Shown: piece by piece, positions 922 through 51,120 of the stretch | Layout: each line of letters begins with the position of its first letter | Numbering within the stretch: position 1 is the stretch's first letter | Assembly (NCBI GenBank): GCA_006384855.1 | Contig: VCJN01001300.1 | Span: 124,001 to 188,000, forward strand | Direction: 5' to 3' | Length of the DNA: 64,000 nucleotides | Source of the DNA: Tetraselmis striata | Lineage: Eukaryota; Chlorophyta; Chlorodendrophyceae; Chlorodendrales; Chlorodendraceae | Translations under genes and position numbers: made by a program | The notes under the pieces: model-generated | Seen by the model: the letters and a program-made list of their open reading frames with translations, nothing else | What the model was told of the DNA's origin: nothing | Databases searched by the model: none

Positions 922-2804
922 CTATGCATGCGCGCGTGCGACAACTCGCCCGGGCGTGGCATGCAGTGGAATCACGCGCAGCCGGGCCATGCACGGCGAA
1001 AAAGTCAGCGGCCGGCGCCCCGTACCGCTGGCCGCCGCCGACCGGAAGCCCTCCGTGCCGTCGTCGCTGGTGTCCCCCTCCCTGGCGGCCTCCGACACGC
1101 CGGTCTTGGACGCTTCGCGCGCCTTGGCGGCGTTGGCGGTGGCGGTGCGGATGGTGGTGACTGCGGCCGAGGCGCTCGAGACACGGCGGGTGATGGCGCC
1201 CGCGTGGAGCAGCGCGGCCGGGCGCGCCGCGGGCATCGCCGCCGCGAGCTGCTCCGCCAGCAGCGCCGACTGCTCCTTCATCTTGGCGTCCATCATGCGC
1301 GCCATGCTGTCCGCCAGCTCCGCCAGGTCCTGCTTGTACTGCTTCAGCCCCAGCGCGTCGCCGCCGCCGCCCTTGAGCTCGCTGTCGGGGACGAGGAGGT
1401 GCAGCCAGCGCGGCACAAAGTGCGGGCGCCGCATGACACGCTTGCCCAGCACCAGCTCCATCTCCAGCAGCAGCCCCGCGCGCTCGCGCAGCGCGATGAC
1501 CTTGATGTTCTCCTTCACCTTCTCCGTGGTGTCGCTCATGAGCGCGATGAGCGCGTTGAGCAGCAGCACGGCCTGGTAGAGCAGGAATACGAGCGTGATG
1601 GCCTGCGTGAGCCACGACGCGGTGTACGGCACCTCGTACGCCGCCAGCATGACGGAGAAGGTGTAGAAGATCATCTCCCACACGTTCTCCATGCTGCCGT
1701 TCAGGTCGGCGTCAAAGTGCACCTGCCGGTGGGGGATGGGGGCGGGGGGGGGGGGGGGGGGGGGGGCAGTCGGCGTGAGGAGCGGCGCCGAGCATTTGCT
1801 CCCCATCCATGTCTCCAAAATATGCCCAAGAAAGTGGCTTGTTTTGAATCAAAAATCTTCAGTTTCTCCAAAAAATGTCAATGCATCTGAAACTTTATAA
1901 AATCGTTGTTGACTTTCCAGAGCATTGTCCAAAACATTGTTATTTTTTCCACGCGACTTTCATCAAGGGCCAAAACGTTGACAACTGCAGGAAAGATTGC
2001 TTCGGGTTTTGTAATATATTGACTCTGCAGTATTTGAGGCCACATGTTATATTATATTGTTATACATTGAAAAAGAATAATGATATTACTAACCTTTATA
2101 TTGTTATATACATATGTTATTATAATAGAATAAAATGCACTTTGAATCGAAATCCAAGTGTTTTCCTCTGGTCGAAGTCACATGAACACATCAACATTGG
2201 TGTGCACGATGCTCAGAACCGTGAAAGGTACCATTATTTTGCTTTGGCTTTTCTTTGGCGCGAGGTCAAAACTGTGAAGGTCTGAACAGGTGGGGGCCGC
2301 GCCCCCCGGAAGGCGCATGCGGCAGGGGGGGGGGGGGGGGGGGGGGGGTATGTGGAGAGCACCGACCTGTGGCGGAAGCGTGTAAAACGCAAACGTGGCG
2401 GCCGCAAGGCCAATGCCCACCAGCATCATCATGTAGCGCATCTCAAAGCTGATCTCCGCGATGAGGCGCACGAGGCCGCCGGTGCTGGAGAAGGCGCGCG
2501 CAAAGTAGAGTGTCTTGAGCCATGCGGCAAACACCGCGACCGACGTCACTGACGGCGCGGCCACAGGCAGCTCCATCCACCCGGTTACGCCCGCGGCCAT
2601 CAGGAGCGGCAGCAAAACGATATCGTAGATGTGGAAGGAGCTCCTGCGGGGCGCATGGGGGGGGGGGGGGGGGGGGTTGATGAGCGGTTGACGTGCACGG
2701 GGACATCCATGTGGGTTATCGACCAGACACGCGTGCTGGTGCACATTTACAAACCCCAATTAAAAGCCTCAAAGTGGGCTTGCATGCAAACCTACGAGTA
2801 CATT

Positions 2805-5800: not shown

Positions 5801-8800
5801 GGAGCAGCGCGCATGTCATGGCATGCACTGTCATGTACAAGGCCAAAGGGGTAGATGGCAGCATTGTGTGCTCCAACAGCATATCTTCAGGCGGGGGGGG
5901 GGGGGGGGGGGGGGGGGGTCGGACCGGTGGACAGCAGCGTTGCTGTTGTCTCGTCTCCCGCCTCGTGCATCTGCACGATGGTGTCAATGATGGCCGCCAC
6001 CAGCTGGTAATCCATCCGCGTGAGAATGGCGATGTTCTGCACGCACAGGCCAAATCATGGCGCCGCTGCAACCCCAACACGGCAGTCACAGCGCACAGTC
6101 CACAGCGCATGTAGAAAGTGCAGCATGCCCCAACACCACTTGGGGAATTCGCATTGATGTGCACACAATTGTGCAGCAGAAGGGAGGACCGTACGGTCTG
6201 CCAGGCTCAATTCGGCATGCTGTAGGACCTCACCTGCGGGCTGTACGGCAGCAGGGGCGACACGCGCCGATCGCGTGCGCTGTCCAGCAGGAATGGCAGC
6301 ATCTGCTGATCATGCGCGCGGTTGATGATGCCCCACAGAAGCAGGATGCCGCTGTCGTTGCGCCCCAGGCAGGTCATGGTCTCGGGGTACCGGCTGAAGA
6401 TGTCGGTGATGGCCGCCATCGCGCCGGTGCCGGCTGCAGGCACCAGCGCACCGGAGAAGCAATCTCAGGCATGCAGGCCGCCAGGTGCGCAGGGCAAGGT
6501 GGTGCTTTGGCCCTCTAGGTAGCACAGGTGCCGGCACCCGGATGCGGCGGGGACATGGGGATGGGGAGGCTTGCCGTTCTCAAGCACGTGCTGCGCGCGC
6601 GAGAAGGGCACGAATCTCTGGCACGCATCCGTGGCGTCCATCAGGTAGATGGATCCCTTGAAGGTGGCGATGGCGATCATGCTGCCACTGTCGTCCTGGT
6701 CTTCCGGATGCTGATAGTTCCAGCTGCGGAACATCAGCCAGGGGGGGGAGGGGGTTAGGCAACTCCAGGCCACACTAGAAAGCCAGGGCAAGGTTGAGCA
6801 GGTGCAGGCGCTTACGCAATGGCCATGGCTGGCATGGAGTAGCTGGCCCATATGCCGTAGGGCACAAACTTGCCGCCACTCGTTCCGGCCCACAGGCGCA
6901 CGGTCTTGTCAAAGCTCGTGGACGCAAGCATGTGGCCCTTTGGGTGCCATGCGATGTCCGTGACGGTGTTGGCGTGCCCCTCCAGCACCACAATCTGCGC
7001 CCAGTCCCCATCCCCGCCCTCCACGCCATCATACCCCCACAACCGGATCTTGGAGTCCTTCGCGCCAGTGGCGAGCAGCGTGGCGCCGCCGCCGGCAGAC
7101 GGGCGGAACTTGGCGGCCCACACGTCGTCCTGGCAGGGCAACACGGAGTAGCTCACGTTCACTTTTGAGCCGTCGCTGTGGCTCTGCACCGGGTCCATGC
7201 CCGCCACACGGTACACGTTGACGTGCCCGTCCCACGCCCCGGTGGCCAGCCAGGCGCCGTCGCTGCTGAAGTCCTGCACCCAGATGCGGTTCGTGTGGTC
7301 GCGGTAGTAGCAGGCCATCACCCAGTCCGGCGCAAGTCGGTCGGTCTTTGCGGCCTCATTGCGCACGTAGAGCATCAGCTTCCTGTGGCAACACCGGCAG
7401 TGGATGAGAATTACCGCAACGGGGGCGCAGCCACCACCATCACCGCATCACAATGTCCTGCGGGCGCAGCGCCCACCTGTTGAAGCCGGCAATGGACATC
7501 CACTTCCCGCTGGGGTGAAACGCGACGCAGCTGATCTCCTTGGGCTCGCCCGGCTCCGATTGGTTCTCAATGACCTGCACCAGCTTGCCGCTCCGCAGCT
7601 GCCAGATTTGCACCGTGCCGTCGTGGCACGCAGACGCGCAGATGTCCTCCGTCGGGTGCACGGAAACATCGAACACAAAGGAGGTGGGCCCCGGCTGGTG
7701 ATTCATCCTGTGCACGGTGTTGCCGTCCGCGGCGCTTGACACCCGCACGCTGCTGTCCCGGTGGCCGCTCACCAGGCGTGTTGCGTCGCGCGTGAAAGCA
7801 ACCGAGTACACGGTGCTCAGGCTGCCAGGATCGCCGACAGTCACAATGTCTTCCGGGCCACTCTTGGTCTATGGAGGGAAAAGAGAGGAGGGCCAGAAGG
7901 CGGGGGGGGGGGGGGGGGGGGGGGGGGTGAGCGCTTGCTATAGGTTGTTGCATGAATGGATCCGCCAAAGGGTGGATCCTGGTTGGGGCATGAAGCGGGG
8001 CCGGTGAATTGGTGGGGCATTACCTCCCACAAGCGGACTGTGCCATCGGCCGATGCAGAGATGAGGATGCCGTCAGAGTTGGGCAGGAAGTGGACGGAGG
8101 TGACGCTGCCGCCATGGCCCGTCATCGTGCGCATGCGCAGGCCGGTGTGCGTGTCAAAGAGAAGCAGCGAGCCGTTCTGGCAGCCGGCGACCATGATGTT
8201 ACCGTGCAGCGAGAAGCCGCAGCGCGTGAAGTGCGTGTTGCTGGACTGCAGCTGCCGGATGCAGACCTCGTTGTCGATGTCCCACAGGCGCAGGTTGTAG
8301 TCCATGCAGGCGGTGATGAGGAGGTCGGCATCGCCGACGCTGCTGGCGCCGCCGACCTGCCGAAACTTGCACGCCAGCACCTCGCGCGGGTGCGGCAGCT
8401 TGCGCGGCTCGGCAAAGTGCGGCAGCACGCTCTCCTCCGACTCTGGCAGAAACTGCCATATGTGCACCGCACGCCCGGTTGTGGAGGTTGCCAGTAGCAT
8501 ATCGCCCTCGCCGTGGAACGACCGGTCCAGGACGTCCATGTCTGTAATCTGGGAAGGAGCGGCGGAATATGGAGGGGGTGGGGGGTCGTACAATAGTACG
8601 CCGACTCTGAAAACAATCAGATCTGCGGAGACAGAGGTTAAGACCTGGCTGGATCCAAGGTATGGCGGTGCAAAGGGATGGAGAAGCAAGATTGCGGGCT
8701 GTGCGGATAGCGGGCTCCCACATATGCACAATGTATACCGAGGGTAATATGCCGCATGGGGTTCACAGGGCGCACATGGCTGCGCCCGGACAAGGCGGGG

Positions 8801-11590: not shown

Positions 11591-12035
11591 TGTCGTTGCA
11601 AATATCGCAGTCGTGGGCGTGCTGAGACACCGTCCGCCGACTCCAGTTCAAATTCGAAAAGCCCGACGCAAGAAAGAGCACCCGCTACCCACAAGGTGAA
11701 ATGCGGCACCGCCCGCTCCGGGAATAGAGGCTTTACCTCTTCATGTTCGACATAAGCTATCTTCCTGACATGTTTAATTATTGTCGAGGCTGCGGGGGGG
11801 GGGGGGGGGGGGGGGGGGGGGTACTTCGGCGGCAGGGTTGGCTGACCCGTCTTCCATAGCCTCACCAAGTGGCGTCGGCGGCGGAGGATCCTCTCCGGCG
11901 GTGGAGAATGGCGCGCCTTGATCCGGCGCGCCGGATCCGGCGCAAGGCAAGCCGGAATGAAGTGGAGGGGAGGGCCGACCCCTCTCCACTCCCAAGCGTC
12001 CTCACTTGGATATAACTCTGGTATGGCACTATTGA
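11580..12035 (-). mobile_element. repeat family D copy 1 with embedded 28-nt homopolymer
   Basis: Read on the minus strand this matches 50050-50430: GACGCTTGGGAG.GGAGAGG, then GCCGCCGAAGTAC followed at once by a C run (11794-11821 here, 50196-50216 there), then GCCTCGACA..AACATGTC.GGAAG. A peptide resembling KPLFPERAVPHFTLW is partly conserved between the copies but broken by stops or frameshifts. It probably derives from a transposon protein whose type I cannot name. Confidence 0.6.
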
Positions 12036-13955
12036 ACACCACATGTGAGTCAATATGGCATACAAAACCATGGGACCGATTGTGCGTAACACGCAGATGC
12101 GTATCAACTATTCATCGCATACACGACAAGGCGTGTTGGAGTCGTAGTGTCTTGTCGGCATGGATCAAACGCTGCCCTCCCACCGAATCGCACTCACTCA
12201 TAATATGGACAACGCTCGGCTGGCAGTAGCCTTGCGTTCCCATCGCCCGAGCCCTTCCGAGCCCAGCCATTTCCAACTGCCGGCAATGTTCCAGTGTATC
12301 CATTACCGGAAATCGAAGCCTTACTCTCACCGGAAATGTAAGTGTGGCATGTATTGCCTCGGTCGGAACCCCAACCACTGCGGGGCCCGCGGGCGTTTTC
12401 TCTCCTCATTCCCCTCGAAATCGGCAATTGTACTCAATTTATCCATAGACATCTGATCTAATCTAAGAAACGACAATGCATTGACGCGTTTTATCGTGTC
12501 GCCCCTCGCGAAAACCCCCGTGCCTTTCCAGGGAACGGGGGCTGACGGGTTTGCGTTGAGGGATGGCAAGTTGAATGATGCATATACAACCGTGAAGGTG
12601 GCGTTGGGCGACAATATTCGCGGGCGGGAGCGGAGCTGCCACACATGCAGAGTACCGCGAATTTCACCCCAAAGATTGCGACAAGCTCGCCGCGTGGATC
12701 GGCGTGCTGCGCTCGGACCCCGCGCAAACTTCCTTGGAACTTCGCACTTGACAGGAAGCTGTGGTGAGAACCGTTAGTGGCACGAAATGCACGCACAGCG
12801 CCGTGCGGGTGTAGCGATCTATCGGTAATTTTCAGTTACTCCCGAGCCGCGTGCCCCCCCCCCCCCCTCCCGCCGCACCGCCTATCCCACCCCCCTCTCC
12901 CAACCCCTAGCGGCAGTTTGTAATGGACGTGCCTACTGATGAAGGGCATGCGAGTATTTGCTCTTTAATCGTGTGTTGCATTACTGAAGATTTAATGACA
13001 CTACCCTATTTGTCATGACCCTTTTTGTCATTGACACGACTTACCGAGACATTACACGCATTTATATAATTATCCAATGTCCCCATATCCAATATTGATG
13101 CGCAATGTGGATAAACTTGCACATCGTGTACCTCTGGTGGCATGGCACTATAGGAAACATGCGGAAGGTTGTACTATGGGGTGTCCGTTGTCTTCTCGTT
13201 CACATGCCGCCGTACTTGCGCAAACTCGCGTCCAATTGTCGTCACAATTACTCGTGTTTATCCTTCGCAAACCCATAAAACGGGGCTCGATCTAGCGTAC
13301 TTTCACCCATGCGCACGTGGATGTTCCCGAATAGCGGATGGGGGTGGGATGGCGTGCCAACGGTCGAGTAGGGGACCGTGCCCATTTAAGTGTTGCTTTA
13401 GGGCAATGAGGTAGTAGGGCACTCCAAGGCGGTCGGCCGATGTAACAAAAGTAGCCCTTTCTCGCTACTCGCTACTCGCTATTGCCGGCCACGACTGCCA
13501 GCATGCACTTCATGTAGCTCACACGACATGTCGTCTCAATGACTTGTCGTTGCATCACATTTAATTCCGCACCGCAGCTCACGACGCGTCCAAAATATTG
13601 TGGGCGGGTATATGTATATGACGGTAGGCAAGATATTGCGGACGAGTGCATGTTGGCAAGTACCGCCGACGTTGTGACGACCGCGCGAGATGACTGCGGC
13701 GTTAGGCCCACGCCACGACGACGAGCGACCCGCGCCGTCGAGGAGTACGGGCGCTGCGATGTCCAGAGTCGGCGTTTGTCGACGTGGCCGGTTGCCGACG
13801 GGTGATGGGCGTGTTGTTTCTTACGCCAAAGAAATCTTGCAACGAACAACCGTGTCAACGACATGTCGTGACACGGGTCATGAAACGCGCCGCTGCGGGA
13901 TGCCGTAATGATGGGGGGGGGGGGGGGGGGGGGGGGGGAGGAGGCGCGAATGTGT
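12036..13955. other. intergenic stretch without supportable gene
   Basis: There are no credible exons. The stretch contains C runs near 12846-12858, triplicated 'ctcgctactcg' near 13458 and a 26-nt G run at 13913-13938 directly beside the foldback that follows. Short pieces near 13000-13070 and 13850-13875 (cgtgtcaacgacatgtcgtg) resemble the ~135-bp repeat found to the right. Confidence 0.5.
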
Positions 13956-14479: not shown

Positions 14480-15010
14480 TCTGTCGATACACATTATCTC
14501 CCAAAATGGCGTCGCGGTTGCAAGGTGTGGCCATTACACATACAGTGTTGCGGTTCCCACGCGATTATGGGAGATAAGACATGATGCCGGTTTCACGTGG
14601 CCACATGTCGTAATCATCATACGGTGTGTAATACCATATAGTATTGTCAGCCGTACCCGCGGCGTCACACATTATCTCCCAAAATTGCGTCGGGGTTGCA
14701 AGATGTCGCCATTATACACATGCACTGTTGTTGTTCCCACGCCATTTTGGGAAATAATGCATGACACCGATTTCACGTGGCCACATGCATGTGGTGATAT
14801 TGACACGGTGTGTAATGCCACATATTGGCAGCCGTATTTCGGTGTCACACATTACGTCCCAAAATAGCGTGGGAATTGCAACGTGGCATCATTGCACATA
14901 TAGTGTTGCGACTCGCACGCCACTTTGGGAGCCATGTATGACACATTTTTGGTCACATTTTGGTAAATAACCGCATTTGGCAACCACCGCGTTGGCGCAT
15001 TGTGTATTCT
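14480..15010. repeat. three tandem ~180-bp units, each an internal palindrome
   Basis: The landmark ACATTATCTCCCAAAAT starts near 14491, 14669 and 14849 (spacing 178 and 180). Inside each unit the block TATCTCCCAAAATGGCGT is followed about 60 bases later by its near-perfect reverse complement (for example ACGCCATTTTGGGAAATAAT), so every unit can fold. Units differ at roughly one base in ten, so the array is old. Confidence 0.75.
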
Positions 15011-15159: not shown

Positions 15160-16620
15160 CATCACCTCGTTGAGTCGCGTCGCAATAACTACATGACCAC
15201 TTCCGAGCGAGAGCCCATCATATGATATGTGTGTACGACGTATCGTTGACACGATTATTCGTTGTAGTATGCTCCGGCGTAATAAACACCACATATCATA
15301 GGTGCAAAGATATGTTCGTCGCAACACATTGTTAGTAACGATATATCGTGTCAACCTTAAATCGTTACATATGGGGTATTTTTGTCACCCATAATTGTTC
15401 ACGACTTGCGTGTTTTCATCAACCCCGGACAATAGTATGCCCGGAGCGCACATGAGTGTTAGTCACGCTATATGGTGTCAACGTGAAAACGTTATACCTA
15501 CATGTGCGGTAGTTTATATCACCCATGATCGTTCATACAAGTATACGTGTACGTTATCATCAATCCCAGACAGCAAAATGTGGCGATCGCGCATTGTTAG
15601 TTTAACGATACATTGTGTCGACGCTAAATCGTTACCGGTGAGGTTGTTGTTTTCTGCCACCCATTATCGTTCATGACTTGCATGCTTTCATCAACCCCGC
15701 ACCGACATACCGTATGACCCGAGCGCACAATGTTCGTAACGAGATATCGTGTTGACTTTGAATCGTTGCATCTGAGGTAGTTGGTTTCGTCACCTAGCGT
15801 TATCGTTAACGGCTTAAATGTTTTCAGCAACCCCGGATAAATAGTATGCCCCGAGTGCACATCAGTGTTAGTTACGCTATATATCGTGTCAACGTTAAAT
15901 CGTTACATGTGCGATAATCTTTAATCGCCCATGGTCGTTCACACGAGTATAACGCCGCCGTGTTCCGTGAACGTCGCAACATTATTAGTCACGCTACATC
16001 GTGTCAACGTGAACTCGTTAAATATGCGGTAAATTTGTATCATCCACGATCGCTCATACGCGTATGCATGTCGCCGTGCCATCATCAACCCCGGACAGTA
16101 TATCATGAGCGCATGCACAATGTCAATAACGATACATCGTGTCAACGTTAAATCGTTACGTGTGATATAGTTTTTGTCACCCATTGTCGTTCATGACTTG
16201 CGTGTTTTCATCAACCCACCGACAGATAGCGTATGTCCCGAGCGGACAACAATGCCAGTCACGCTATATATATCGTGTCAACGTGAAATCGTTAAAAGTC
16301 GCGAATGCCTGACAATAATATGTCCCAACCGCACAAAAATTATGTTAGTCACAATATATCGTGTCACCGTTTATTGAATCGTTACAAGCGAGGTAGTTTT
16401 TTTTGGTCACCCATCATCGTGAATGATGTCGAAACGGGGTCCACTCGTCGCTCGTCGCTCGTGCGACTTGCGTGTTTTCATCAACCCCGGACAAATAGTA
16501 TGCCCCGCCCAACGCACAGCGGTGTTAGTCAAGCTATATCGTGTCAACGTGAAATCGTTACATGTGCGGTAGTTTTTATCACTGGTCGTCCGGGTACATT
16601 GGTATGGTCCGTATACATCC
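15160..16620. repeat. degenerate ~135-bp tandem repeat array, block 1
   Basis: About ten units share the modules ATCGTGTCAACGT.AAATCGTTAC, a 'ATCACCCAT.ATCGTTCAT' box, CATCAACCCCGGACA.ATAGTATG and GAGCGCACA..GTTAGTCACG. The ATCGTG landmark recurs at intervals of 127, 139, 134, 137, 115, 138, 136, 86 and 180 bases. The same family forms a second array at 47.9-48.6 kb. Its reading frames are short and not conserved. Confidence 0.8.
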
Positions 16621-35139: not shown

Positions 35140-35170
35140 CTACGGCGGGTACTGGTGTGAATTACAAAAA
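35140..35170 (-). mobile_element. LINE family B tail end, inverted, left of the family C element
   Basis: TACGGCGGGTACTGGTGTGAATTACAAAAAGGG-like sequence (the inverse of CTTTTTGTAATTCACACC) occurs here and again at 38108-38142, on the far side of the family C element. Together they bracket that element. Confidence 0.6.
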
Positions 35171-35239
35171 GGGCAGTAACAAATCCACCTACTGCTAAAA
35201 GCAGTAGTACTAGAAAATCAACACATCGAGCCGCCCAAT

Positions 35240-35310
35240 GTAAGGATATGTACCACACAAATCCCCATGTGGGTACCCAGTGCCTGGTGCGTTTTGCGCA
35301 GTATCCTTAC
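35240..35310. repeat. 71-bp inverted-ended repeat, left copy
   Basis: It begins GTAAGGATATG and ends GCAGTATCCTTAC, so the outer nine bases are inverted repeats. Internally GTACCACAC...GTGGGTAC can also pair. A 74-bp copy lies at 38017-38090, with an inserted CGC as the main difference. The left copy runs into the reverse transcriptase frame of family C. Confidence 0.85.
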
Positions 35311-37802
35311 AGTTGGTGCTTCTACGATCGCCCTAGCGACCTGTACTACTACGCGACGGATGATCCCGGTACTTTGCGCGCCACCCTACAGTCTCGTCCG
35401 GGTGTACGCCAGGGTGATGTCCTGGCCCCGCTGTACTTCTGCCTCGCTATCGCGGGCCCAGTGCAAGCGGTTGTGGCTCGTACCGCCGCTGATACTTTTT
35501 GCCAGAGTTTTGCGGATGATTGCGGCGCGGCCACTGCCGCGGCCCACGTTCCGCGCGTTTTCGACGAGTACTGCACGCGCGGAGCTTTCCAAAGTCGGAC
35601 TGGTGGTACAGGACAGTAAAACGCGGTACGTTCGTCACCCCGGCGACAGCGAGTCCGAGTTGCGGACAGTACGGGAGAAGTTGGCCCCGGGAGGATTTCG
35701 GACCCCGGCCGATGATCCTGTCCAGGATGGCGCCGTGTACCTGGGTGCTCCTATTAGCCATTACCCCGAGTGGATGACCGGCGCGTTGGGGCGGCGCCGG
35801 GAGGCCCACGCCACACTGTTGGAGCGCATCGCCTCCTTTGGCACGTCGGGATACGGCTGCCACCATGGGGCCATGCGGTTGCTGGTCGTATGCGCGGTGC
35901 GGCAGACTGGCTTCCTCAGCCGCATGATGCCGCCGTCGGAGCTGGACCCTTTCTTGGAGGCCGTGGACGCCGCGAACATTTCGGCTGCGTTTTCGCTGCT
36001 TGGCCTAGACGCTTGCGACCACTCTACACCGTGCATGGAGGCTGCAATCGTTCAGATGAGTATGCCCGCGGATTTTGGCGGTCTGAATCTGGCCTTGCTG
36101 CAGTCCGAGGCCCCTGCGGCGTTTTATTCCGCGCAATCGGTTGTCCTGCCAAAGCTGGTACGGGAGTACGGGCCCGCCCTTGGCCCCTTATACGAGGCGG
36201 TCCGCGCCGAGGTGTCGTCTGTGGCTACGAGTGCTTTGCCATGGGCGCGTGAGACGCGCCGCGTGTACGAGACTGTACGGGCCCTAACCACGTTACCGCA
36301 AGAAGATGTGCGGCGCGCACGCGCGGCGTATGGGCACGCCCACGAGATCTTCGAGTTACTTACGGTCAGTAATGCTACGACCACCGCTGCATCGGATCCA
36401 GCAGCTGGTACTACGACCCGTACGGGTACGAGCACTAGCGGAGGATTGCGCGTCACCACATCTCCTTTTACGGCCACTCCTCTTGGAGTTGGTACTGGTG
36501 AGGCCGCCTCTGCTGCCCAGCAATTGCTTCCTATCGGTGGTACGAGTACTGCCAATACCGTTACTACATGCGCTTTTGTAGCTCTGAAGATACCGTCGCC
36601 GGGCGAATTTGTGGCACACCCTCCGTCAGCAGCCACGGTTTCCCTCCCAGAATCGCTGCCAGGTTCTACTGCTCCGCCCTCGGGTACGGGTTCGGGTGCG
36701 ACCTCCGATGATCAACCCACGACCATGGTTGTCCAACGCCACCTCAGCCGTGCGATTCGCTTGCGTGACTTCGTGGCCCTCGATCTCGGCTTCCAACGTA
36801 CTGGTGCAGCGGCCTCGCGACTTGATACCCTGCGCCTGTACAGCGCGTGCGGGCCGGGCTCCCTATCGCTTTTCCAGTCGGATCACGAGTCCGCCCGCAA
36901 GATTCCCCATGCTGCTTATGCGGCCGCCGCTGCGCGGGTACTGGGCCTTTGCCCGCGCGGAGGTTCCGCGCTTGTCACTTGCCCTGGCCCAACGTGTGGT
37001 ATTGATCCCTTATGGCTGCGCTCTACGGATGGCTCGAACCGGATGGAGGGCTACGGATTTCATCGTGGATCATCTACCCATATGCCCCGTAGCGAACTAC
37101 AAGCACCGCATGCATACCGCTTTGAAGAATCTGTGGGCATCTGTGGCAATTGATGCGGGGGCGGTGCTTGACCGGGACCGCTCGGGAGCCGGCGACTTGA
37201 CCCTTGAGACGAGTGGGCTGCGCCCAGCGGACCGCTCGCGGCCGTCGGACCTGACGCTGGCGGGGTGGGGAGGGGCAGCGTGCGATTACATGATCGACTT
37301 CGCGTGCGTGTCCTCCACGACCCCAACTTGGAGCAACGACCCCCGCTGGTGCATCCCGGGAATCGCGGCGACCGAGGCGGAACATGCTAAGTTGGCAGCG
37401 GACCGGGCGTCTTCCGCCCCAGTGCAGGGTGTTCACCGGTACTACCCTTTTGTGGTTGAGGACCGCGGCCGACTCGGGAAGTCCGCTTTGACTGTGGTCT
37501 ACATCTTCGCGGTGCTGTTGGCTGTGCGCAACTTCCCTGGCGGTCCTTCCGCCCCGACCTCTTGCTTTCTTCGTGGTCAATCCGTTCAGGCACTTCGAAA
37601 CTTTGTCGCCGGCCAACCTGCTGAGTTCCGCCGTCACCTGTCGCGCACACGGCGGGGGCTGTTGCAGCGGGTCTCGGCTTGCGTGCATGGTACCTTGGGC
37701 GGCATTCTCTCTGCCGGTGTGCAGATGGCCAAGTCTGATGCGTGTGCTCGTGCCCACTCTGCGTCTTCTCATGTTACTGCTTCCACCCCGCAGTCGATGT
37801 AG
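35248..37802 (+). pseudogene. non-LTR retrotransposon family C: reverse transcriptase to C-terminal endonuclease-like region, frameshifted
   Basis: Three frames make one ancestral protein. Frame one has GVRQGDVLAPLYFCLAIAGP and FCQSFADDCG, the reverse transcriptase QG..L.P and .ADD boxes. A shift near 35580 leads to ELSKVGLVVQDSKTRY and on through 37070 (about 490 codons: thumb and linker). A second shift near 37060-37090 leads to a frame ending at 37802 with RPSDLTLAGWGGAACDYMID, AEHAKLAADR and PFVVEDRGRLG. The RP.D, D and K spacing resembles the restriction-like endonuclease of R2/CRE-type elements; that is inference. Fingers and palm motifs before QGD are missing, so it is 5'-truncated. 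After the stop, 37873-37897 has a B-box-like GGGTTCGATCCCGCG and then ATATGATATGATATC. Confidence 0.75.
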
Positions 37803-41057: not shown

Positions 41058-42478
41058 CTATCGCAGCCATTCGGGATTGCGATACCCATACTGGTACTGT
41101 CCCGGCGCGCTGCCGCAGGTCTCGGAGTCGTCCGAGTCGCTGTCGCTACTGCTACTGTCGCTGCCGCTCTTGCTCTCGCTCCCGCTCTCGCTGCTGCCAT
41201 GGCCCCACAGGCCGCCCTGTGGCGTCTGGCCATTCCTGCTACGGAGCGGGTGACCGTGCTGGTCCCGTGGGGGCTTCCAGTTCCCATGTGCCTCCGTGTC
41301 GCCTCCCGGGGGCCGCGGAGTGCGCGGAGCGGGGTCAAAATTCCATATCTCAGTCTCTAGCCGGCATCGTTTGCCTGCTTGCGGAACCTCGTCGCCACCA
41401 AGCTGCACCAACGGACGAAGTGTGTTGTGGCCTCGTGGTGTAGCCGCCTCCCAGCCGCCCAATGCAAGCAACCCATCCGGACCAACGTCAGGCAAATCGC
41501 CTTGCAGTGCTCCACTGTCTGCGGATGCCGTCTGGTAGTTGTTGTTGCATTGCCGCCGGCGCAGCGCTACGCTTGTCCGTTCCCTGGCTGATGCACGGGG
41601 CTCCCGGCTCACTTTGGCAGCCATCCCCTCCAGTGACTTTACTGGCTTCTTCCGAAGATACGCCGACGCCACTTTCACAGGGGCTTGAGCGGCAAAAACT
41701 TTACCACCGCACGCCTGCAGGAGCTGCTGTCTCTGCTGTGAAAGTATCTCTGGCCGTGGAGGCGGAAGTGACCTCTGCTTTTGGCAGTAGCCAGCGCTGA
41801 TGGGCGAGCGCATTTTCGCTGGCACCGTCAGGATGTCCTGAGCGAGTCTGTCCATGCGCTCGACCTCTTTGTCTAATGTGCCTGCGCATATTCCCACTAC
41901 TGCACAGTCTGGGCCTGCGGCAGCTGGCGACCCTGATCGTGGCGGGTTCGGCCAGGTATCCATGGTAGCCATGGCCCCTCGGGCATCTCCATGCCAAGAG
42001 GCGAGTGTCACTGACGGATCACTGCGTGACAGTAGTGGATCAAGTTGTCGACGCCCATGCGCTCCAGCTGCCAACGCATCACCGCTCCTCCGAAGCCTAT
42101 GGTGCAAAGGACATCCACACGCATGTGCAACATAAGCCAACCATGGATACTGGGGGGGGGGGGGGGGGGGGGAGTATTAGTGGCCAGCACGCACACTTCA
42201 TAGCTGTCCTTCGCCTCAATGAGTTTCTTTAGCTTTGCGAGAAAATAGCCATTACTGTCTCCTGTCTTGCTGCTGAGGTTGTCAAGCTGAGGAAGCCCTT
42301 GTGGTTCAGTGGGCCGCCGGCATGGCGGGGACTGGATTTCGCACCCAGAGTTTGGAATGGACCCTCGCGGACTGACCAAAGACGGCTCTAGGCCAGGAAG
42401 AGGCGCCCAGTACCGGTTGACATTGACTGGCAAGTCAGGTAGCAGCGCTTGGGCAGACATGCTACACCCAGGCAACAA
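41058..42478 (-). CDS. hypothetical protein with acidic Ser/Asp-rich C-terminus, two exons
   Basis: I do not recognise this protein. The likely exons are 42478-42197 (ending in SKTGDSNGYFLAKLKKLIEA followed by KDSYE) and 42149-41058. The acceptor follows a 21-nt C run on the transcript strand, and the joined phase is 0. The product would be about 457 aa with no signal peptide or membrane helix. A central helix-rich part reads DKEVERMDRLAQDILTVPAK. The tail is SSESGSESKSGSDSSSSDSD followed by SDDSETCG, an acidic serine-rich stretch. Exon 1 contains the most protein-like sequence. The second frame could hide more introns. Confidence 0.45.
42152..42172. repeat. homopolymer tract acting as polypyrimidine tract
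   Basis: A 21-nt G run on the plus strand becomes C on the transcript strand and directly abuts the inferred acceptor AG at 42150-42151 of the minus-strand gene. Confidence 0.9.
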
Positions 42479-42559
42479 CAGGACATTTTAGTATCACCAG
42501 ATGCCAGGAGCATGTTACTTGCGCGACCTTGTTAGGAAGAGACTTGCGCATTTGCCGGA

Positions 42560-43700
42560 CCCTTGTTAAAATATACCTGGTGCTCGCCGTAACAGCCAGA
42601 GTACCGCAGTGCTCATCCTAGACACGAGAGTGCCTGTACAGTGGCGCGACTTCGGCAGTGGGCGGGCCGTGTCGCACGTGGTTGCCGGCACGCACTGCTG
42701 CATATTCGCACCGTGGCAGGCGCGACTCGCACTGTCGGGGAGGTACGAGTACGGGGGACTAGGTGCACTTGCGCCAGTAGTCGGCGCCTGAACATAGCAA
42801 TATCGGTAGACCGCGCTGGAGAGTCCAAGAAGGTCTACGCGAGAGTGCCACTTGCACTTGCGCGGCTGGCAACACAGAGCACGGACATACCTGCCTTCTC
42901 TTGCGGTGGACGATGACCCCGAAGTAGCAAACCCTGCGAGCGCAGGCATGTAAGGCGTACAGTACGCGTACGTGTGTTGTACGGGAGCGCTTCTGCTACT
43001 CAAGAGACCGGTGTCGGACCCCGGGCCACGCGGGAATAGGATTTGTGGCCGCCTCGCTGCGAGTCGTAGGACGCAGTGATACTTGCCATGGCCCGCGTAA
43101 GCTGGCGAAGGGAACCAGCAGTAGTGCCGCCGTAAGGTCTCCCGTTGTCGCCGCCACCATCACACCTGCCGTGTTTTACATTATCCCCAAAATATCAGTA
43201 CTACGCGCCGGCGTACGCGGGCGAATAGAGTGCAACGAGGTAGCTTTTGCTGATGTCAACATTAAATATTTCCTTTTGATGGTTCTTTGTAGTGCGCATA
43301 CGTTAAACAACTGCTGTTTAACCATTGCGGGGCCGCGTTTGCCAAAGATGAAAATATCTTACATTTTTGGGTGTGAGTAGGCCCACGGGCGTGCTGTCCG
43401 CAATGAAAAGGGTACAGGTAGCATAGCGGCGTGGGTGGGTTGCGCTAGCTGGTCAGCTGGCGCAAAGGCAGAAGGTGGACTCCCCTCGTGGTGCGGGTGC
43501 GTCATGTATCAGGGCTGTCGCATGCTGTCGCTAGCGCCGCAGGACATCGGGAAGTCCAAGCGGTACGCGTACTGCGAGTACAGGTACTGGTCGCTAGCAT
43601 TCAAACTACTGTAGAATCTTAACATTACCAGTACCGGTGACAGAATAGCCCGGTGTAATCAAACCTCTATATTACCAATATGACCATAAAAAGAAATACT
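42560..43700. other. intergenic region, no gene supported
   Basis: Only isolated frames occur, for example a 145-aa minus-strand frame ending at 42566 without family resemblance. A segment near 43245-43330 (TTCTTTGTAGTGCGCATACG) resembles pieces beside the LINE and SINE scraps at 25.8 and 60.4 kb, hinting at another dispersed repeat. Confidence 0.4.
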
Positions 43701-43884: not shown

Positions 43885-46800
43885 AACCGACTACATATAT
43901 ATAGTAAGCACAACGCGCGAGATGCCGGAGCCGTACTAATGCGCGCGCTGAGGGGCGCATATCGGGTAGCATATATGGAACGAGCTGCAACATGCGGCAC
44001 CTCGTCCGGATGAAACCTTGTACGCGTTCCGCGGGGCGGCGCACTATGGTCATTACGCGAATAGCTCCGAAACCAGTCTGATAAACCGCAGCACGCGGCT
44101 TACTGCGGGCCTCACATAGCGCGCAATGGGGGTGAACATGCGGCCTAGCATGAATATCTCAGGTGAGGCAAAGTAACACGTTGCGTCACGCCGCCGCACT
44201 CCGGATGGCCGCTCGGAGCCGTTCCGCGGCCGGTGGCCGACAAACCGTATCACGCCCGTGCCTTTATGTGCCCATGCACGGCACGGGCTACACCGCATCG
44301 TATGTATGAAATGCGGGCCGAGGAGACGCGAGTTGAGGAAAGCACGTGTTGGGGGAGACACATGCAAGGCAACACGCCGCGACTATTCATGCTAACCGCC
44401 CGGCGCCGTTTAGAGTAGCAAACCGCGACGAGGCGCGTGAATGATCATGTATATATGTGCCCCAATAAGCATGGCGCGCGCACGATTCGTGGGCCGTATA
44501 CCAATGCGCGCCGCTGGACGCGCGTAGCGGGTAGCATCTTTCGAACGAGCCAAACACGCGGCCATATGCCGCACCTCGTCCGGATTAGTGCTCGTAGCAC
44601 TACGGTTGCACGGCGCGACGCCGTAAACCGTATAGCGGCCATACCAATGTGGGCTGGCCCACGCACGGCACGCGCTACACCTTTACCGGAGCGTTCACAA
44701 CGCGCGCCGAGGAGACGCGGGCATAGGCAAGCATGTGTCGGACGAGAGAAATACTAAGCGACGTACCGCGGCCAATTCTCGATGACCGCTTGGGCGGTTG
44801 CAATGTGCGGATCTGTGAGCGGTAACGCGCCCCACGACTATATATATGCCACAAGCACCACGCGCGAGATGCCGGAGACGTATCAATGCACGCCGCTGAG
44901 GGGCGCATATCGGGTACATATCGGGAGCATATATGGAACGAGCCAAAAACACGCTGCAATATGCGGCACCTCGTCCGGATGAAACCTTGTACGCGTTCCG
45001 CGGGGCGGCGCACTACTAGGGTCATTGTGCGAATAGCTCCGAAACCAGTCTGATAAACCGCGGCACGCGGCTTACTGCGGGCCTCACATAGCGCGCAATG
45101 GGGGTGCACATGCGGCCTAGCATATCTCAGGTGAGTCAAACACGTTGCGTCACGCCGCCGCACTCCGGATGGCCGCTCGGAGCCGTTCCGCGGGGTGGCC
45201 AATAAACCGTATTGCGCCCGTGCCTTTATGTGCCCATGCACGGCAAACATACTTATATGGCTACACCGCATCGTGTGTATGAAATGCGCGCCGAGAAGAC
45301 GCGAGTTGAGGAAAGCACGTGTTGGGGGAGACACATGCAAGGCAACACGCCGCGACTATTCATGCTAACCGCCCGGCGCCGTTTAGAGTAGCAAACCGCG
45401 ACGCGGCGCGTGAATGATGACGTATATATGTGCCCCAATAAGCACGGCGCGCGCACGATTCGTGCGCCGTATACCAATGCGCGCCGCTGGACGCGCGTAG
45501 CGGGTAGCATCTTTCGAACGAGCCAAACACGCGGCCATATGCCGCACCTCGTCCGGATTAGTGCTCGTAGCGCTGCGGTTTCACGGCGCGACGCCGTAAA
45601 CCGTATAGCGGCCATACCAATGTGGGCTGGCCCACGCACGGCACGCGCTACACCTTTACCGGCGGGAGCGTTCACAACGCGCGCCGAGGAGACGCGGGCA
45701 TAGGCAAGCATGTGTCGGACGAGAGAAATGCTAAGCGACGTACCGCGGCCAATTCTCGATGACCGCTTGGGCGGTTGCAATGTGCGGATCTGTGAACGGT
45801 AACGCGCCCCACGACTATATATATGCCACAAGCACCACGCGCGAGATGCCGGAGCCGTACCAATGCACGCCGCTGAGGGGGGCATATCGGGTAGCATATA
45901 TGGAACGAGCCAAAAACACGCTGCAACATGCGGCACCTCGTCCGGATGAAACCTTGTACGCGTTCCGCGGGGCGGCGCACTACTAGGGTCATTGTGCGAA
46001 TAGCTCCGAAACCAGTCTGATAAACCGCGGCACGCGGCTTACTGCGGGCCTCACATAGCGCGCAATGGGGGTGCACATGCGGCCTAGCAAATCTCAGGTG
46101 TGTCAAACACGTTGCGTCACGCCGCCGCACTCCGGATGGCCGCTCGGAGCCGTTCCGCGGGGTGGCCAATAAACCGTATTGCGCCCGTGCCTTTATGTGC
46201 CCATGCACGGCAAATATACTTATATGGCTACACCGCATCGTATGTATGAAATGCGCGCCGAGGAGACGCGAGTTGAGGAAAGCACGTGTTGGGGGAGACA
46301 CATGCAAGGCAACACGCCGCGACTATTCATGCTAACCGCCCGGCGCCGTTTAGAGTAGCAAACCGCGACGCGGCGCGTGAATGATGACGTATATATGTGC
46401 CCAAATAAGCACGGCGCGCGCACGATTTGTGAGCCGTATACCAATGCGCGCCGCTGGACGCGCGTAGCGGGTAGCATCTTTCGAACGAGCCAAACACGCG
46501 GCCATATGCCGCACCTCGTCCGGATTAGTGCTCGTAGCGCTGCGGTTTCACGGCGCGACGCCGTAAACCGTATAGCGGCCATACCAATGTGGGCTGGCCC
46601 ACGCACGGCACGCGCTACACCTTTACCGGCGGGAGCGTTCACAACGCGCGCCGAGGAGACGCGGGCATAGGCAAGCATGTGTCGGACGAGAGGAAATGCT
46701 AAGCGACGCACCGCGGCCAATTCTCGATGACCGCTTGGGCGGTTGCAATGTGCGGATCTGTGAACGGTAACGCGCCCCACGACTATATATATGCCACAAG

Positions 46801-47650
46801 CACCACGCGCGAGATGCCGGAGCCGTACCAATGCACGCCGCTGAGGGGCGCATATCGGGTAGCATATATGGAACGAGCCAAAAACACGCTGCAACATGCG
46901 GCACCTCGTCCGGATGAAACCTTGTACGCGTTCCGCGGGGCGGCGCACTACTAGGGTCATTGTGCGAATAGCTCCGAAACCAGTCTGATAAACCGCGGCA
47001 CGCGGCTTACTGCGGGCCTCACATAGCGCGCAATGGGGGTGCACATGCGGCCTAGCATATCTCAGGTGAGTCAAACACGTTGCGTCACGCCGCCGCACTC
47101 CGGATGGCCGCTCGGAGCCGTTCCGCGGGGTGGCCAATAAACCGTATTGCGCCCGTGCCTTTATGTGCCCATGCACGGCAAATATACTTATATGGCTACA
47201 CCGCATTGTATATGTATGAAATGCGCGCCGAGGAGACGCGAGTTGAGGAAAGCACGTGTTGGGGGAGACACATGCAAGGCAACACGCCGCGACTATTCAT
47301 GCTAACCGCCCGGCGCCGTTTAGAATAGCAAACCGCGACGCGGCGCGTGACATATCATGTATATATGTGCCCAAATAAGCACGGCGCGCGCACGATTCTT
47401 GAGCCGTATACCAATGCGCGCCGCTGGACGCGCGTAGCGGGTAGCATCTCTCGAACGAGCCAAACACGCGGCCATATGCCGCACCTCGTCCGGATTAGTG
47501 CTTGTAGCGCTGCGGTTTCACGTGCGGCTTGTTAGCCGCATAGCGGCCATACTAATGTGGGCTAGCCCACGCACGGCACGCCCTACACTACCGGAGCGTT
47601 CACAACGCGCGCCGAGGAGACGCGGGCATAGGCAAGCATGTGTCGGACGA
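43885..47650. repeat. higher-order satellite: ~970-bp dimeric unit, about 3.9 copies
   Basis: The landmark GCGCGAGATGCCGGAG starts at about 43915, 44862, 45839 and 46807. AGCACGTGTTGGGGGAGACA starts at 44341, 45314, 46281 and 47251. Spacing is 967-977 apart from the shortened first unit. Units look ~97% identical. Within a unit two related monomers alternate, one near 570 bp and one near 395 bp. Both carry an ACCAATGC.CGCCGCTG block, a GCATAT/CTT.CGAACGAGCCAAA block, a GGCACCTCGTCCGGAT block and CGCGCCGAGGAGACGCG. The longer monomer has about 180 bases of extra sequence. Frames up to 328 aa run across units but are not under visible coding constraint. The layout is that of centromeric-type higher-order repeats; the function is inferred. 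Confidence 0.9.
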
Positions 47651-47664
47651 GCTCGACGGGAATT

Positions 47665-47690
47665 AGCTCCCCCCCCCCCCCCCCCCTCCC
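47665..47690. repeat. C tract closing the satellite array
   Basis: A run of about 17 C follows GACGAGCTCGACGGGAATTAG where satellite similarity stops. A second C run of about 20 is at 47857-47876. The ~135-bp repeat begins soon after. Confidence 0.85.
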
Positions 47691-47879
47691 ACGAGGGCTG
47701 ACAAGTAGGTCTTCCTCCCATGTGAAATAAAATGATGCCACATTCGGCCTTGTATTCAACTGTGGATGGCACCTTCCGCATGTCTCGTCGGCAACACATC
47801 ACGATAGGTACCGTGTCAACGTGTAGTCGTGATAAGTAGAGTATATTTGTCACCGCCCCCCCCCCCCCCCCCCCCCACT

Positions 47880-48640
47880 TGGTTACTAACATATAGTGTC
47901 ACGCGAAGTATCGTGTCAACGTGCAGTAGTTACATATTTATGTAGGTTTGATTTGACCCGCAATCGGTCATTGTCAGATAAACCCGCTGACAACGGCACC
48001 GACCCGCTTAGTGGCACGATTTAATCGTGTCAAGGTCACGTCGTGTGAAGTAGGGAACACCATTGTAAGCAACGATATATCATGTCAACGTTAACTTGCT
48101 ACATGTGCGGCAGTATTTTATCACCCACGATCATTCGAGTATGCGGCCGCCGTGTTATCATCAACCCGGACGGACAGTATATCCCCCAAGCGCACAGTAG
48201 TGCTAGTAACGATACATCGTGTCAACGATAAATCGTTACAATTGAGGTAGTTTTTTATCACTCGCGATCGTTCATACGAGTATGTCACCAACCCGGACAA
48301 AAGTCACGCTATATGGGGGTCTACGTGAAATCAATACACGTCGCGAAGGCCGGACATTACGTTCGCCGGACATTATATCGTTATAGGAGTGTATGGCCGC
48401 TGTGTTATCGTCAACCCGGACGTCCGGTATTCCCCGATCGCACAGTGTTAGAAACGATATATCTTGTCAGCGATAAATCGTTACAAATGACGTTGTTCTT
48501 TGTCACCCATTATCGTTTATGACTTGCTTTGTAACCCCAATAAACAGACGATATGCCTATCAGCCGCATGACGGTAAGTCGTGTCACCTCCACATCGTGA
48601 CAAATAGGGTAGTGTCATTCGTAGTGTCGTCAATAATCCA
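47880..48640. repeat. ~135-bp tandem repeat array, block 2
   Basis: Same family as 15160-16620: AACGATATATC.TGTCA.CG, AAATCGTTACA, ATCACCCACGATCATTC, CATCAACCCGGAC and AGCGCACAGT. About five or six diverged units are present. The two arrays lie about 32 kb apart in this window, each in a repeat-rich block. Confidence 0.75.
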
Positions 48641-49950
48641 ACACGCGATTATACTATAATAACGAGCAACTGCTCGCATGCCCTTCATCAGTCGAGGGTG
48701 TGGGGTACACATGGCGGGGATCATACATACATACACTTTCCGACGAGCATGAGGCGAAGCAAACGGTGGCCGTCAGCCCACGACCGCGAAACCAACGGGG
48801 CCAACTCGTGGGCGGCTGCTTCGGGAGGGCGGGGGGCCGAATGCGGCATGAGGCCGGCGGCCACACGTGCGGCGGAACTGTTTCCGCCACACATGAGACC
48901 TCCCGTAGCTTGCGTTTCCGCCACCCTTGTCATAGCCATGGAACATATATCAGTTGACACGCATTATCGTTGACACGGAAATACTCACCCCTATATTGGT
49001 TAAGCCTTCCATGATACGAAGGACCATGCTCTTGAAGAAGGTCGGCCCCTTGTCGGCATTCGCCTTACACCGTCGCAACACCCCACTCAGGGGCAGCTCT
49101 AGCAAAAGGGCATGGGAGTCCACCGCCATCATGTGCGGCAGACTCCATTCATACACCGCCTTGAAGGCCTCATTCGATGTTTCCTCTTGCAGAAACTCCA
49201 ACGGGACGTGGGGCGGCCACGAAGCGAACGACACCCCGGTCACAACGCCACTTTCGAAGTACATGCAACCGGATGAGTGTTGGCTGGACAGTCAGTAAGT
49301 GCTGCTTAATACATGTATTTCCGGTATTAATATGCACAATGGCGTATCAATGCATCATTAAAATCGTGACAAATATGAAATGTTCGTCAATATACCTAGC
49401 ATGGACATTCCGGCCCCGGCCAATACCGACACGATTGAGCTCGTCAACGAGAACCCGCTACACATTCGCCGGTTTTGCATGGATGGTACTTGCCCATCGA
49501 ACGTAATAACTACGGCGCTACCCGTATCATCGTTAACACTCGTAATCATCGTGAATTTATGTCATAGGTCATGGGCGGCTCGCACCTCGTGGAATGGAAC
49601 TCGTTCACCGTTTCCCAGCTCCAAAAAGATTCTTCGCGATTGGAATGTGTTATAGCCATCCCCGGCAAAACATGCGCCGTGATTACTGCTTTTTGGACAA
49701 CAACCCTCCCACCGGGCAAGTCCTCGATAAGGAGCGGTTCGTAGCCGATGTCCGCTCACTTGAAGGCCATTGCTTGCACTTCCGCCACATGCTTGTTTTA
49801 GTGCCACAAGGTTGGGGTCCATGTGACTGCCGGGTCTACCTCCCCCCAATACCCCGTGCACGCCAGCTGCCAGGAAAGATTCCACGGTCCCGAGAACGGG
49901 ATCGTAAGTTATTGCCACGGACGGCAGACCTGCACTACGGCGCCAACCTT
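48640..49950. other. region with overlapping medium frames, probably decayed mobile DNA
   Basis: Plus frames of 109-148 aa and minus frames of 104-118 aa (for example FLQEETSNEAFKAVYEWSLP near 49150 on the minus strand) overlap, with no family I recognise and no consistent splicing. The position directly upstream of a family D copy suggests this may be the 5' part of that element. Confidence 0.35.
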
Positions 49951-51059: not shown

Positions 51060-51120
51060 TCGAGCCCCCCCCCTCCCCCCCGCCCCCCCCGCCCCCGCCC
51101 CGCCCCGCCCCGCCGGCAGG
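51060..51120. repeat. C-rich simple sequence with CCCCG units
   Basis: C runs of 7-9 are broken by single T or G, then by four to five CCCCG repeats. A CGCCCGCCCGCC run follows at 51235-51252. The reverse strand could form G-quadruplexes. Confidence 0.9.

What the first reader, a model, noticed from the sequence alone, without database searches (positions are those of the whole stretch)
43885..47650. Dimeric higher-order satellite with ~970-bp period
About 3.9 units of ~970 bp are ~97% alike, while the two monomers inside each unit (~570 and ~395 bp) are clearly related but strongly diverged, and one has ~180 bp of extra sequence. This nested homogenisation is the hallmark of centromeric-type higher-order repeats and is rarely described in green algae, where known centromeres are often built of retrotransposons.
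Basis: partly seen in the sequence, partly recalled or inferred. Interest (0 to 1): 0.8.

Follow-up and report, generated by a model that had tools for sequence, protein, structure and literature searches.

The report
Dispersed two-part satellite repeat array
A short stretch of repeated DNA in a green-alga-like genome is a worn copy of a two-part repeat family scattered over many places in that genome, most likely spread with old mobile or duplicated DNA rather than marking a centromere.

Summary
The array is real (window 43888-47651): four A monomers (554-584 bp) alternate with four B monomers (389-394 bp, the last cut off). A-A identity is 95-98%, B-B 93-99%, A-B about 60% over the whole monomer.

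The centromeric reading is not supported by what could be tested. The family lies on at least 41 contigs of this 224-Mb assembly, as short arrays (longest continuous run seen about 7 kb). A and B form separate clades across loci, so the AB pair is an old family-wide composite unit; most loci are homogenised separately.

Where a 5.1-kb dispersed block R reaches the array side, it follows an A monomer cut at position 476-491 (11 of 11 contigs read). But only 6 of 22 right edges of arrays fetched for the array itself carry R; transposons cut some of the others. I read the array as a satellite spread at least partly inside a long, decayed repeat.

The window copy lies about 640 bp from single-copy DNA and is cut on its right by another dispersed repeat. 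A pericentromeric role is not excluded: six of 31 arrays lie at contig ends, and CENH3 could not be tested.

The parts
43888..47651 (+). Satellite array, 3.9 AB units with offsets of 947-977 bp
43896..44449 (+). A1 monomer
44450..44838 (+). B1 monomer
44839..45422 (+). A2 monomer
45423..45815 (+). B2 monomer
45816..46389 (+). A3 monomer
46390..46783 (+). B3 monomer
46784..47359 (+). A4 monomer
47360..47651 (+). B4 monomer, cut at about position 301 of the B model
47656..49547 (+). Other dispersed repeat that cuts off the array on the right (starts near ACGGGAATTAGC plus a C-run); relatives on C529, C2627 and C225. The C529 copy has no satellite at this edge. End coordinate is approximate
48068..48377 (+). 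One unit of a separate ~308-bp dispersed tandem family, inside that right-hand repeat
43316..43687 (+). Abundant ~370-bp dispersed repeat, 200 bp left of the array
   Evidence: the 39 other matches scored (40 of 924 candidates scored) all fall here, 90-95% identity
41300..43250 (+). Left flank, single copy in the assembly apart from one 33-bp match
   Evidence: 2 candidates, both scored

Best explanation
The array is one small, transposon-cut member of a dispersed satellite family with an old composite AB unit. Shown: A and B diverged from a common monomer before the family spread; most arrays are then homogenised on their own; array length and make-up vary between loci. Shown for a part of the loci: the array adjoins a 5.1-kb dispersed block R at a fixed point, and at a few loci a left block L lies on the other side. 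Inferred: local homogenisation and length change come from unequal exchange or slippage, and the array was spread, at least partly, as the tandem internal part of a long, now decayed mobile or segmentally duplicated repeat (L-array-R). The copies now drift and collect transposon insertions. No cellular function is needed to explain it.
For: Array matches on 27 contigs, 11 more and 3 found by reading R edges, 41 in all; the searches scored 34 of 139 and 36 of 150 candidates, so this is a lower bound. Tree of 111 near-full monomers (66 A, 45 B): all 45 B form one clade, support 1.0. Between-locus identity 0.825 (23 A loci) and 0.834 (16 B loci), A-B 0.66; within-locus A 0.87-0.999, B 0.81-0.998. 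R adjoins an A cut at 476-491 on 11 of 11 contigs where R's array side was read (C2360, C1584, C2465, C1298, C352, C868, C1497, C48, C161, C1859, C1527; about 9 loci after pairing likely alleles) and an A remnant in C1511. R's far end: 15 of 22 other R matches run to within about 8 bases of the same end point; 13 of 13 end sequences aligned, chosen because they reach it, agree up to it and differ beyond. L lies left of the array in C2360/C1584, C1145 and C1967, and 5 kb off in C1027. Transposons cut arrays: C868 by an ~8-kb insert with inverted ends starting CACTGTG and a TAT duplication, the window by the repeat at 47656.
Against: Of 22 right edges with flank at loci fetched for the array itself (window), only 6 carry R; 16 do not, some of them transposon cuts. 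So the L-array-R unit is not general. 7 of 22 other R matches stop short of the common end. No transposition domain was found in six frames of L019:3600-8485 or of the L-bearing L051:1-4800 (two weak matches below cut-off, probably low complexity). No terminal inverted repeat of R was found among fetched loci and no target duplication of an L-array-R unit was shown. L-array junctions differ by about 180-230 bp among loci. C2106 has L without array or R in the 4.8 kb that follow. Local homogenisation is not universal: B copies within C1519, C2674, C1756 and C901 are only 0.81-0.84 alike, no more than between loci.
Confidence: 0.6

Rival explanations
1. Centromeric or pericentromeric higher-order satellite: the short arrays are fragments of much larger CENH3-bound blocks that the assembly could not span.
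For: Higher-order criteria are met. Six of 31 arrays lie within 500 bp of a contig end, 0.49 expected; 0 of 200000 simulations reached six. C179 has two array blocks, the larger (83643-90307) ending about 1 kb from the contig end. About 41 contigs, some of them allelic, could be compatible with one cluster per chromosome. Arrays hold transposon insertions.
Against: The window array is interior to a 262-kb contig, about 640 bp from single-copy DNA, with WD40, CREG and patatin-like exons in the same 64 kb. Two of the six contig-end cases (C103, C1549) have non-satellite sequence between array and contig end. A fixed flank R at some loci fits dispersal. No match to the CENP-B-box core pattern in the window. 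The green-algal centromeres described in the passages that I read are retrotransposon clusters (PMC8226300, PMC10030371, PMC11005252).
Confidence: 0.12
2. The array is a working part (for example promoter-like 5' repeats) of a specific autonomous mobile element, as tandem 5' monomers are in some LINEs (recalled).
For: Array at one end of R, common opposite end, variable array side.
Against: No coding domain found in R; substitutions between two R copies show no codon periodicity in nearly all 150-base windows, one window (2251-2400) excepted; no tail or inverted end found; 16 of 22 right edges lack R.
Confidence: 0.12
3. Subtelomeric tandem repeats comparable to the Sultan arrays of Chlamydomonas.
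For: Unit length of a similar order (Sultan length recalled), homogenised per locus, several arrays at contig ends.
Against: Telomere-like triple repeats are listed for 2 of the 23 array contigs numbered up to C1471 (C48 and C490), both interior and 10 kb or more from the array; none on C1043 (whose listing stops at C1471).
Confidence: 0.05
4. The monomers are tandem copies of a non-coding RNA gene or a regulatory unit.
For: TATA-like start shared by A and B (sequence).
Against: No Rfam family at gathering score in the window; only sub-threshold riboswitch-like matches in the array; no tRNA; conservation between loci is fairly even over the first 450 positions of A and most of B, without a sharply constrained block.
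Confidence: 0.03

Closest known systems
Dimeric (AB) higher-order satellites, e.g. Sorghum dimers and the 343-bp New World monkey composite monomer (PMC4053949, passages read)
   Same: Two diverged monomers repeated as one unit; A and B cluster apart; the composite unit has become the family's repeat
   Different: Units of about 970 bp with monomers of about 395 and 570 bp; short dispersed arrays, some with a shared non-satellite flank; no centromere evidence
Satellites arising from tandem repeats inside transposable elements (for example Drosophila Helitron-derived repeats; recalled, only the search listing with titles and abstract starts was seen)
   Same: Tandem array beside fixed sequence of a dispersed repeat; arrays of variable length
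   Different: Element class unknown; no transposition protein found in R; many arrays lack R
Zepp/ZeppL LINE and Copia centromeres of green algae (PMC8226300, PMC10030371, PMC11005252, passages read)
   Same: Possibly the same broad host group
   Different: Those are retrotransposon clusters; this is a tandem satellite, and no reverse transcriptase was found in its flank R
Sultan subtelomeric repeats of Chlamydomonas (named in a passage of PMC10030371; the original paper, Chaux-Jukic et al. 2021, was not read)
   Same: Tandem units of several hundred bp homogenised per locus (recalled)
   Different: No telomeric repeats near the arrays on the contigs that could be checked

Membership tests
Higher-order (AB) satellite | Multimer identity well above monomer-monomer identity | tested here: met
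   A-A 95-98%, B-B 93-99%, A-B 58-62%
Higher-order (AB) satellite | A and B monomers form separate clusters | tested here: met
   45 of 45 B monomers in one clade, support 1.0, against 66 A
Higher-order (AB) satellite | Higher-order unit specific to one array or chromosome | tested here: not met
   The AB order recurs at many loci and predates their separation; homogenisation itself is mostly local
Centromeric satellite | CENH3 enrichment | not testable with these tools
   no chromatin data
Centromeric satellite | Very long arrays (hundreds of kb or more) | tested here: inconclusive
   Longest continuous runs of matches about 7 kb (C1348, C1232, C179); six of 31 arrays lie at contig ends
Centromeric satellite | One cluster per chromosome in a gene-poor domain | tested here: inconclusive
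   At least 41 contigs, chromosome positions unknown; the window copy is near single-copy DNA with exons in the same 64 kb
Tandem array inside a dispersed (mobile) repeat | Same flank joined to the array at the same point at many loci | tested here: met
   11 of 11 contigs where R's array side was read; but R is on only 6 of 22 right edges of arrays fetched for the array
Tandem array inside a dispersed (mobile) repeat | Fixed outer end of the flank | tested here: met
   15 of 22 other R matches end within about 8 bases of one point, 7 stop short; 13 of 13 chosen ends agree
Tandem array inside a dispersed (mobile) repeat | Target-site duplication or terminal repeats | tested here: inconclusive
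   No convincing inverted match to the R end among fetched loci; left ends eroded or heterogeneous; a genome-wide pattern search did not complete
Tandem array inside a dispersed (mobile) repeat | Transposition protein in the element or a relative | tested here: not met
   No Pfam match at E 0.05 in six frames of one R copy, 4886 of 5125 bases
Subtelomeric (Sultan-like) repeat | Adjacent to telomeric repeats | tested here: not met
   for the 23 array contigs numbered up to C1471 only

The most novel reading that the evidence does not exclude
The AB family is the centromeric or pericentromeric satellite of this green alga: assembled arrays are fragments of larger blocks, with a higher-order dimer that arose from an old repeat element. 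That would be a satellite-based centromere in a group whose described centromeres, in the papers seen, are retrotransposon clusters.
Probability: 0.1. Interest if true: 0.65.

Novelty: new member of a known kind. Interest (0 to 1): 0.3.

Why it matters
It shows, in one genome, stages by which a two-part satellite unit can form and spread: monomer duplication and divergence, fixation of the AB pair, dispersal partly with a larger repeat, then separate homogenisation at most loci. It also warns that dimeric structure at one locus is not evidence of a centromere. If long-read or CENH3 data later tied the family to centromeres, it would matter much more.

Tried and rejected
Inverted partners of the R end among fetched loci: none beyond a 39-bp weak match inside R itself. 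Six-frame Pfam scans of part of one R copy and of the L locus: no transposition domain. Rfam for rRNA-spacer-, tRNA- or snRNA-like units: nothing at gathering score in the window; in 14 flanking loci two ordinary tRNAs, in L010 and L017; only sub-threshold matches in the array. CENP-B-like core: none in the window. Allelic empty site of the window locus: no second copy of the left flank in the assembly (one search was swamped by a repeat). C1511 first looked like an array-free R copy; its left side is an abundant ~1.05-kb repeat that truncates it, so it shows no ancestral state. Literature search for the assembly size: nothing. Literature searches for green-algal satellites, higher-order repeats or Sultan repeats listed no description of this family among the rows shown; the library is partial.

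Dropped rows: partial monomers (A under 480, B under 340 model positions) were left out of the tree, and only part of the tree was printed. Eight contig labels taken as second alleles or duplicates were left out of the conservation counts. One search used 31 of the 41 contigs; ten were left out because contig length or array extent was not known. In the count of right edges, L009 and L016 were left out because the contig ends there.

Confidence in the best explanation went from 0.65 to 0.6 for that reason.

Full report
OBSERVATION. The array is at 43888-47651. Self-comparison shows four tandem units offset by 947-977 bp. Anchored monomers are 554/389/584/393/574/394/576/292 bp long, alternating A and B, with the last B cut. 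A-A identity is 95.2-98.4%, B-B 93.1-99.0%, A-B 58.3-62.1% over the global alignment; alignable A/B stretches are 68-78% alike. The A3-B3 local score of 116 is far above 200 dinucleotide shuffles (mean 22.4, sd 2.7, largest 35). A is about 180 bp longer than B, as reported.

HOST. The window is G000:C1043:124001-188000 in a 224-Mb, 2903-contig assembly. An rbcL gene on contig C1177 scores best against 1gk8 (1011 bits), with near variants and two other sequences (9hvm, 8q04) at 1004-1010 and, for example, 1wdd and 1aa1 at about 950. That 1gk8 is Chlamydomonas is recalled; the listing gives no organisms. A green alga is therefore likely; the species is not known. Pairs of contigs 98-99% alike around the same array (C2360/C1584, C2674/C1756, C989/C973) suggest that both haplotypes are in the assembly.

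DISTRIBUTION. One unit finds 121 matches on 27 contigs (34 of 139 candidates scored). A diverged unit adds 11 contigs (36 of 150 scored, listing cut short). Reading the array side of block R adds three. That makes at least 41 contigs. The longest continuous runs of matches are about 7 kb (C1348, C1232, and C179 83643-90307). Periods differ: AB units in most arrays fetched; wholly or nearly A-type units of 553-558 (C1348), 560-562 (C1232), 567-577 (C725) and 575-579 bp (C179/C490) in the 1.7-2.2 kb read of each, where edge fragments in C1348 and C179 score as B. C529 is irregular (637-778). The spans on 31 contigs sum to 111 kb, interruptions included. Six of these 31 arrays come within 500 bp of a contig end, against 0.49 expected, and none of 200000 simulations reached six. 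Some arrays are therefore probably longer than assembled; but in two of the six (C103, C1549) other sequence lies between array and contig end.

HISTORY OF THE UNIT. Of 111 near-full monomers from the fetched loci, all 45 B fall in one clade (support 1.0) apart from the 66 A (midpoint root). In the part of the tree that was printed, copies mostly cluster by locus within A and within B. Exceptions include C1145_A1, one A and one B of C1549 that join C1545, the C352/C868/C103 group, and the B copies of C1519 and of C1756/C2674. Mean identity between loci is 0.825 for A (23 loci) and 0.834 for B (16 loci); A to B is 0.66. Within loci A is 0.87-0.999 and B 0.81-0.998; in C1519, C2674, C1756 and C901 the B copies are no more alike than between loci. 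The AB pair is thus older than the dispersal, and homogenisation is mostly local. This meets the published criteria for an AB higher-order unit (passages of PMC4053949), but as a family-wide composite unit like the New World monkey example given there.

FLANKS. Some non-allelic arrays share flanks. Block R (L019:3361-8485, 5.1 kb) follows an A monomer cut at 476-491 on 11 of 11 contigs where its array side was read, and an A remnant in C1511. Of 22 other R matches, 15 run to within about 8 bases of one end point (...ACTCGCAAACGGTACTTGTCCC) and 7 stop short. In 13 of 13 end sequences, chosen because they reach it, the sequence agrees up to that point and differs beyond, with small differences in the last bases, largest in L044, L048 and L049. 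The converse does not hold: of 22 right edges with flank at loci fetched for the array (window), 6 carry R and 16 do not. Block L lies left of the array in C2360/C1584, C1145 and C1967, and 5 kb away in C1027; the L-array junction differs by about 180-230 bp between loci. In C2106 no array or R was seen in the 4.8 kb after L. The C1511 copy is truncated by an abundant ~1.05-kb repeat. R and the L locus gave no Pfam domain of a transposon. Substitutions between two R copies show no codon periodicity except in one 150-base window (the first ~600 bases did not align). No convincing inverted match to the R end was found. I therefore infer a long, decayed L-array-R repeat, mobile or segmentally duplicated, of unknown class, as one vehicle of dispersal.

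EROSION. Arrays are broken by insertions. In C868 an A monomer is split at positions 381/377 by about 8 kb with inverted ends CACTGTG[G/A]GATTCAGATGTG and a TAT duplication. This looks like an EnSpm/CACTA-type element (class recalled), and a similar end lies at the right edge of the C1145 array. The window array is cut at 47651 by another dispersed repeat that starts near 47656 and occurs on C529 without satellite at that edge. On the left, a ~370-bp abundant repeat lies at 43316-43687, and 41300-43250 is single copy apart from a 33-bp match.

CENTROMERE QUESTION. The array is interior to a 262-kb contig, close to single-copy DNA, with WD40, CREG and patatin-like exons elsewhere in the window. 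Green-algal centromeres described in the passages that I read are retrotransposon clusters: Zepp/ZeppL LINEs and Copia (PMC8226300, PMC10030371, PMC11005252). Nothing here shows CENH3 association, and nothing excludes that some larger, unassembled arrays are pericentromeric. The literature searches listed no description of this family in the rows shown; the library is partial.

VERDICT. The higher-order structure is real in the sense of a composite AB unit. The centromeric reading is not supported on present evidence. The best reading is a dispersed satellite, spread at least partly with a decayed repeat and mostly homogenised locally.

Noticed in passing
window 48068-48377; also window 15325-16582: Units related to a ~308-bp dispersed tandem family. 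(40 of 135 candidates scored) shows it on many contigs, on eight of them as inverted pairs about 3-9 kb apart (C1693, C1318, C871, C777, C626, C187, C1025, C1487; some may be alleles), as if a transposon had tandem-repeat-bearing inverted ends (foldback-like). A 1-kb stretch of C871 also matches window 15325-16582.
   Followed up: partly
L026 (C973:185500-195400) against L025 (C989): Likely allelic contigs differ by an insertion of about 2 kb bounded by 496-bp direct repeats 99.6% alike, which looks like a recent LTR element; an A monomer of L026 is also interrupted where that of L025 is not.
   Followed up: no
L021:1188-2822: 544-aa reading frame with tyrosine-recombinase domains, about 1.5 kb from an AB array; a Crypton- or DIRS-like element is possible.
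   Followed up: no
L011:2-2056: Ty3/gypsy-type reading frame with RNase H, integrase and a weak chromodomain match (below cut-off) beside block L.
   Followed up: no
window 1738-1766, 5893-5918, 7902-7927, 11794-11821, 13913-13938, 51065-51111: Runs of about 26-47 G or C bases, several inside or next to reading frames, perhaps near intron ends.
   Followed up: no
window 14489-14930: Separate ~180-bp tandem repeat, 2.5 copies, 77% matches; similar sequence on C2627.
   Followed up: no
window 35161-35619: Reading frame with a weak reverse-transcriptase match below the family cut-off, probably a degenerate retrotransposon.
   Followed up: no
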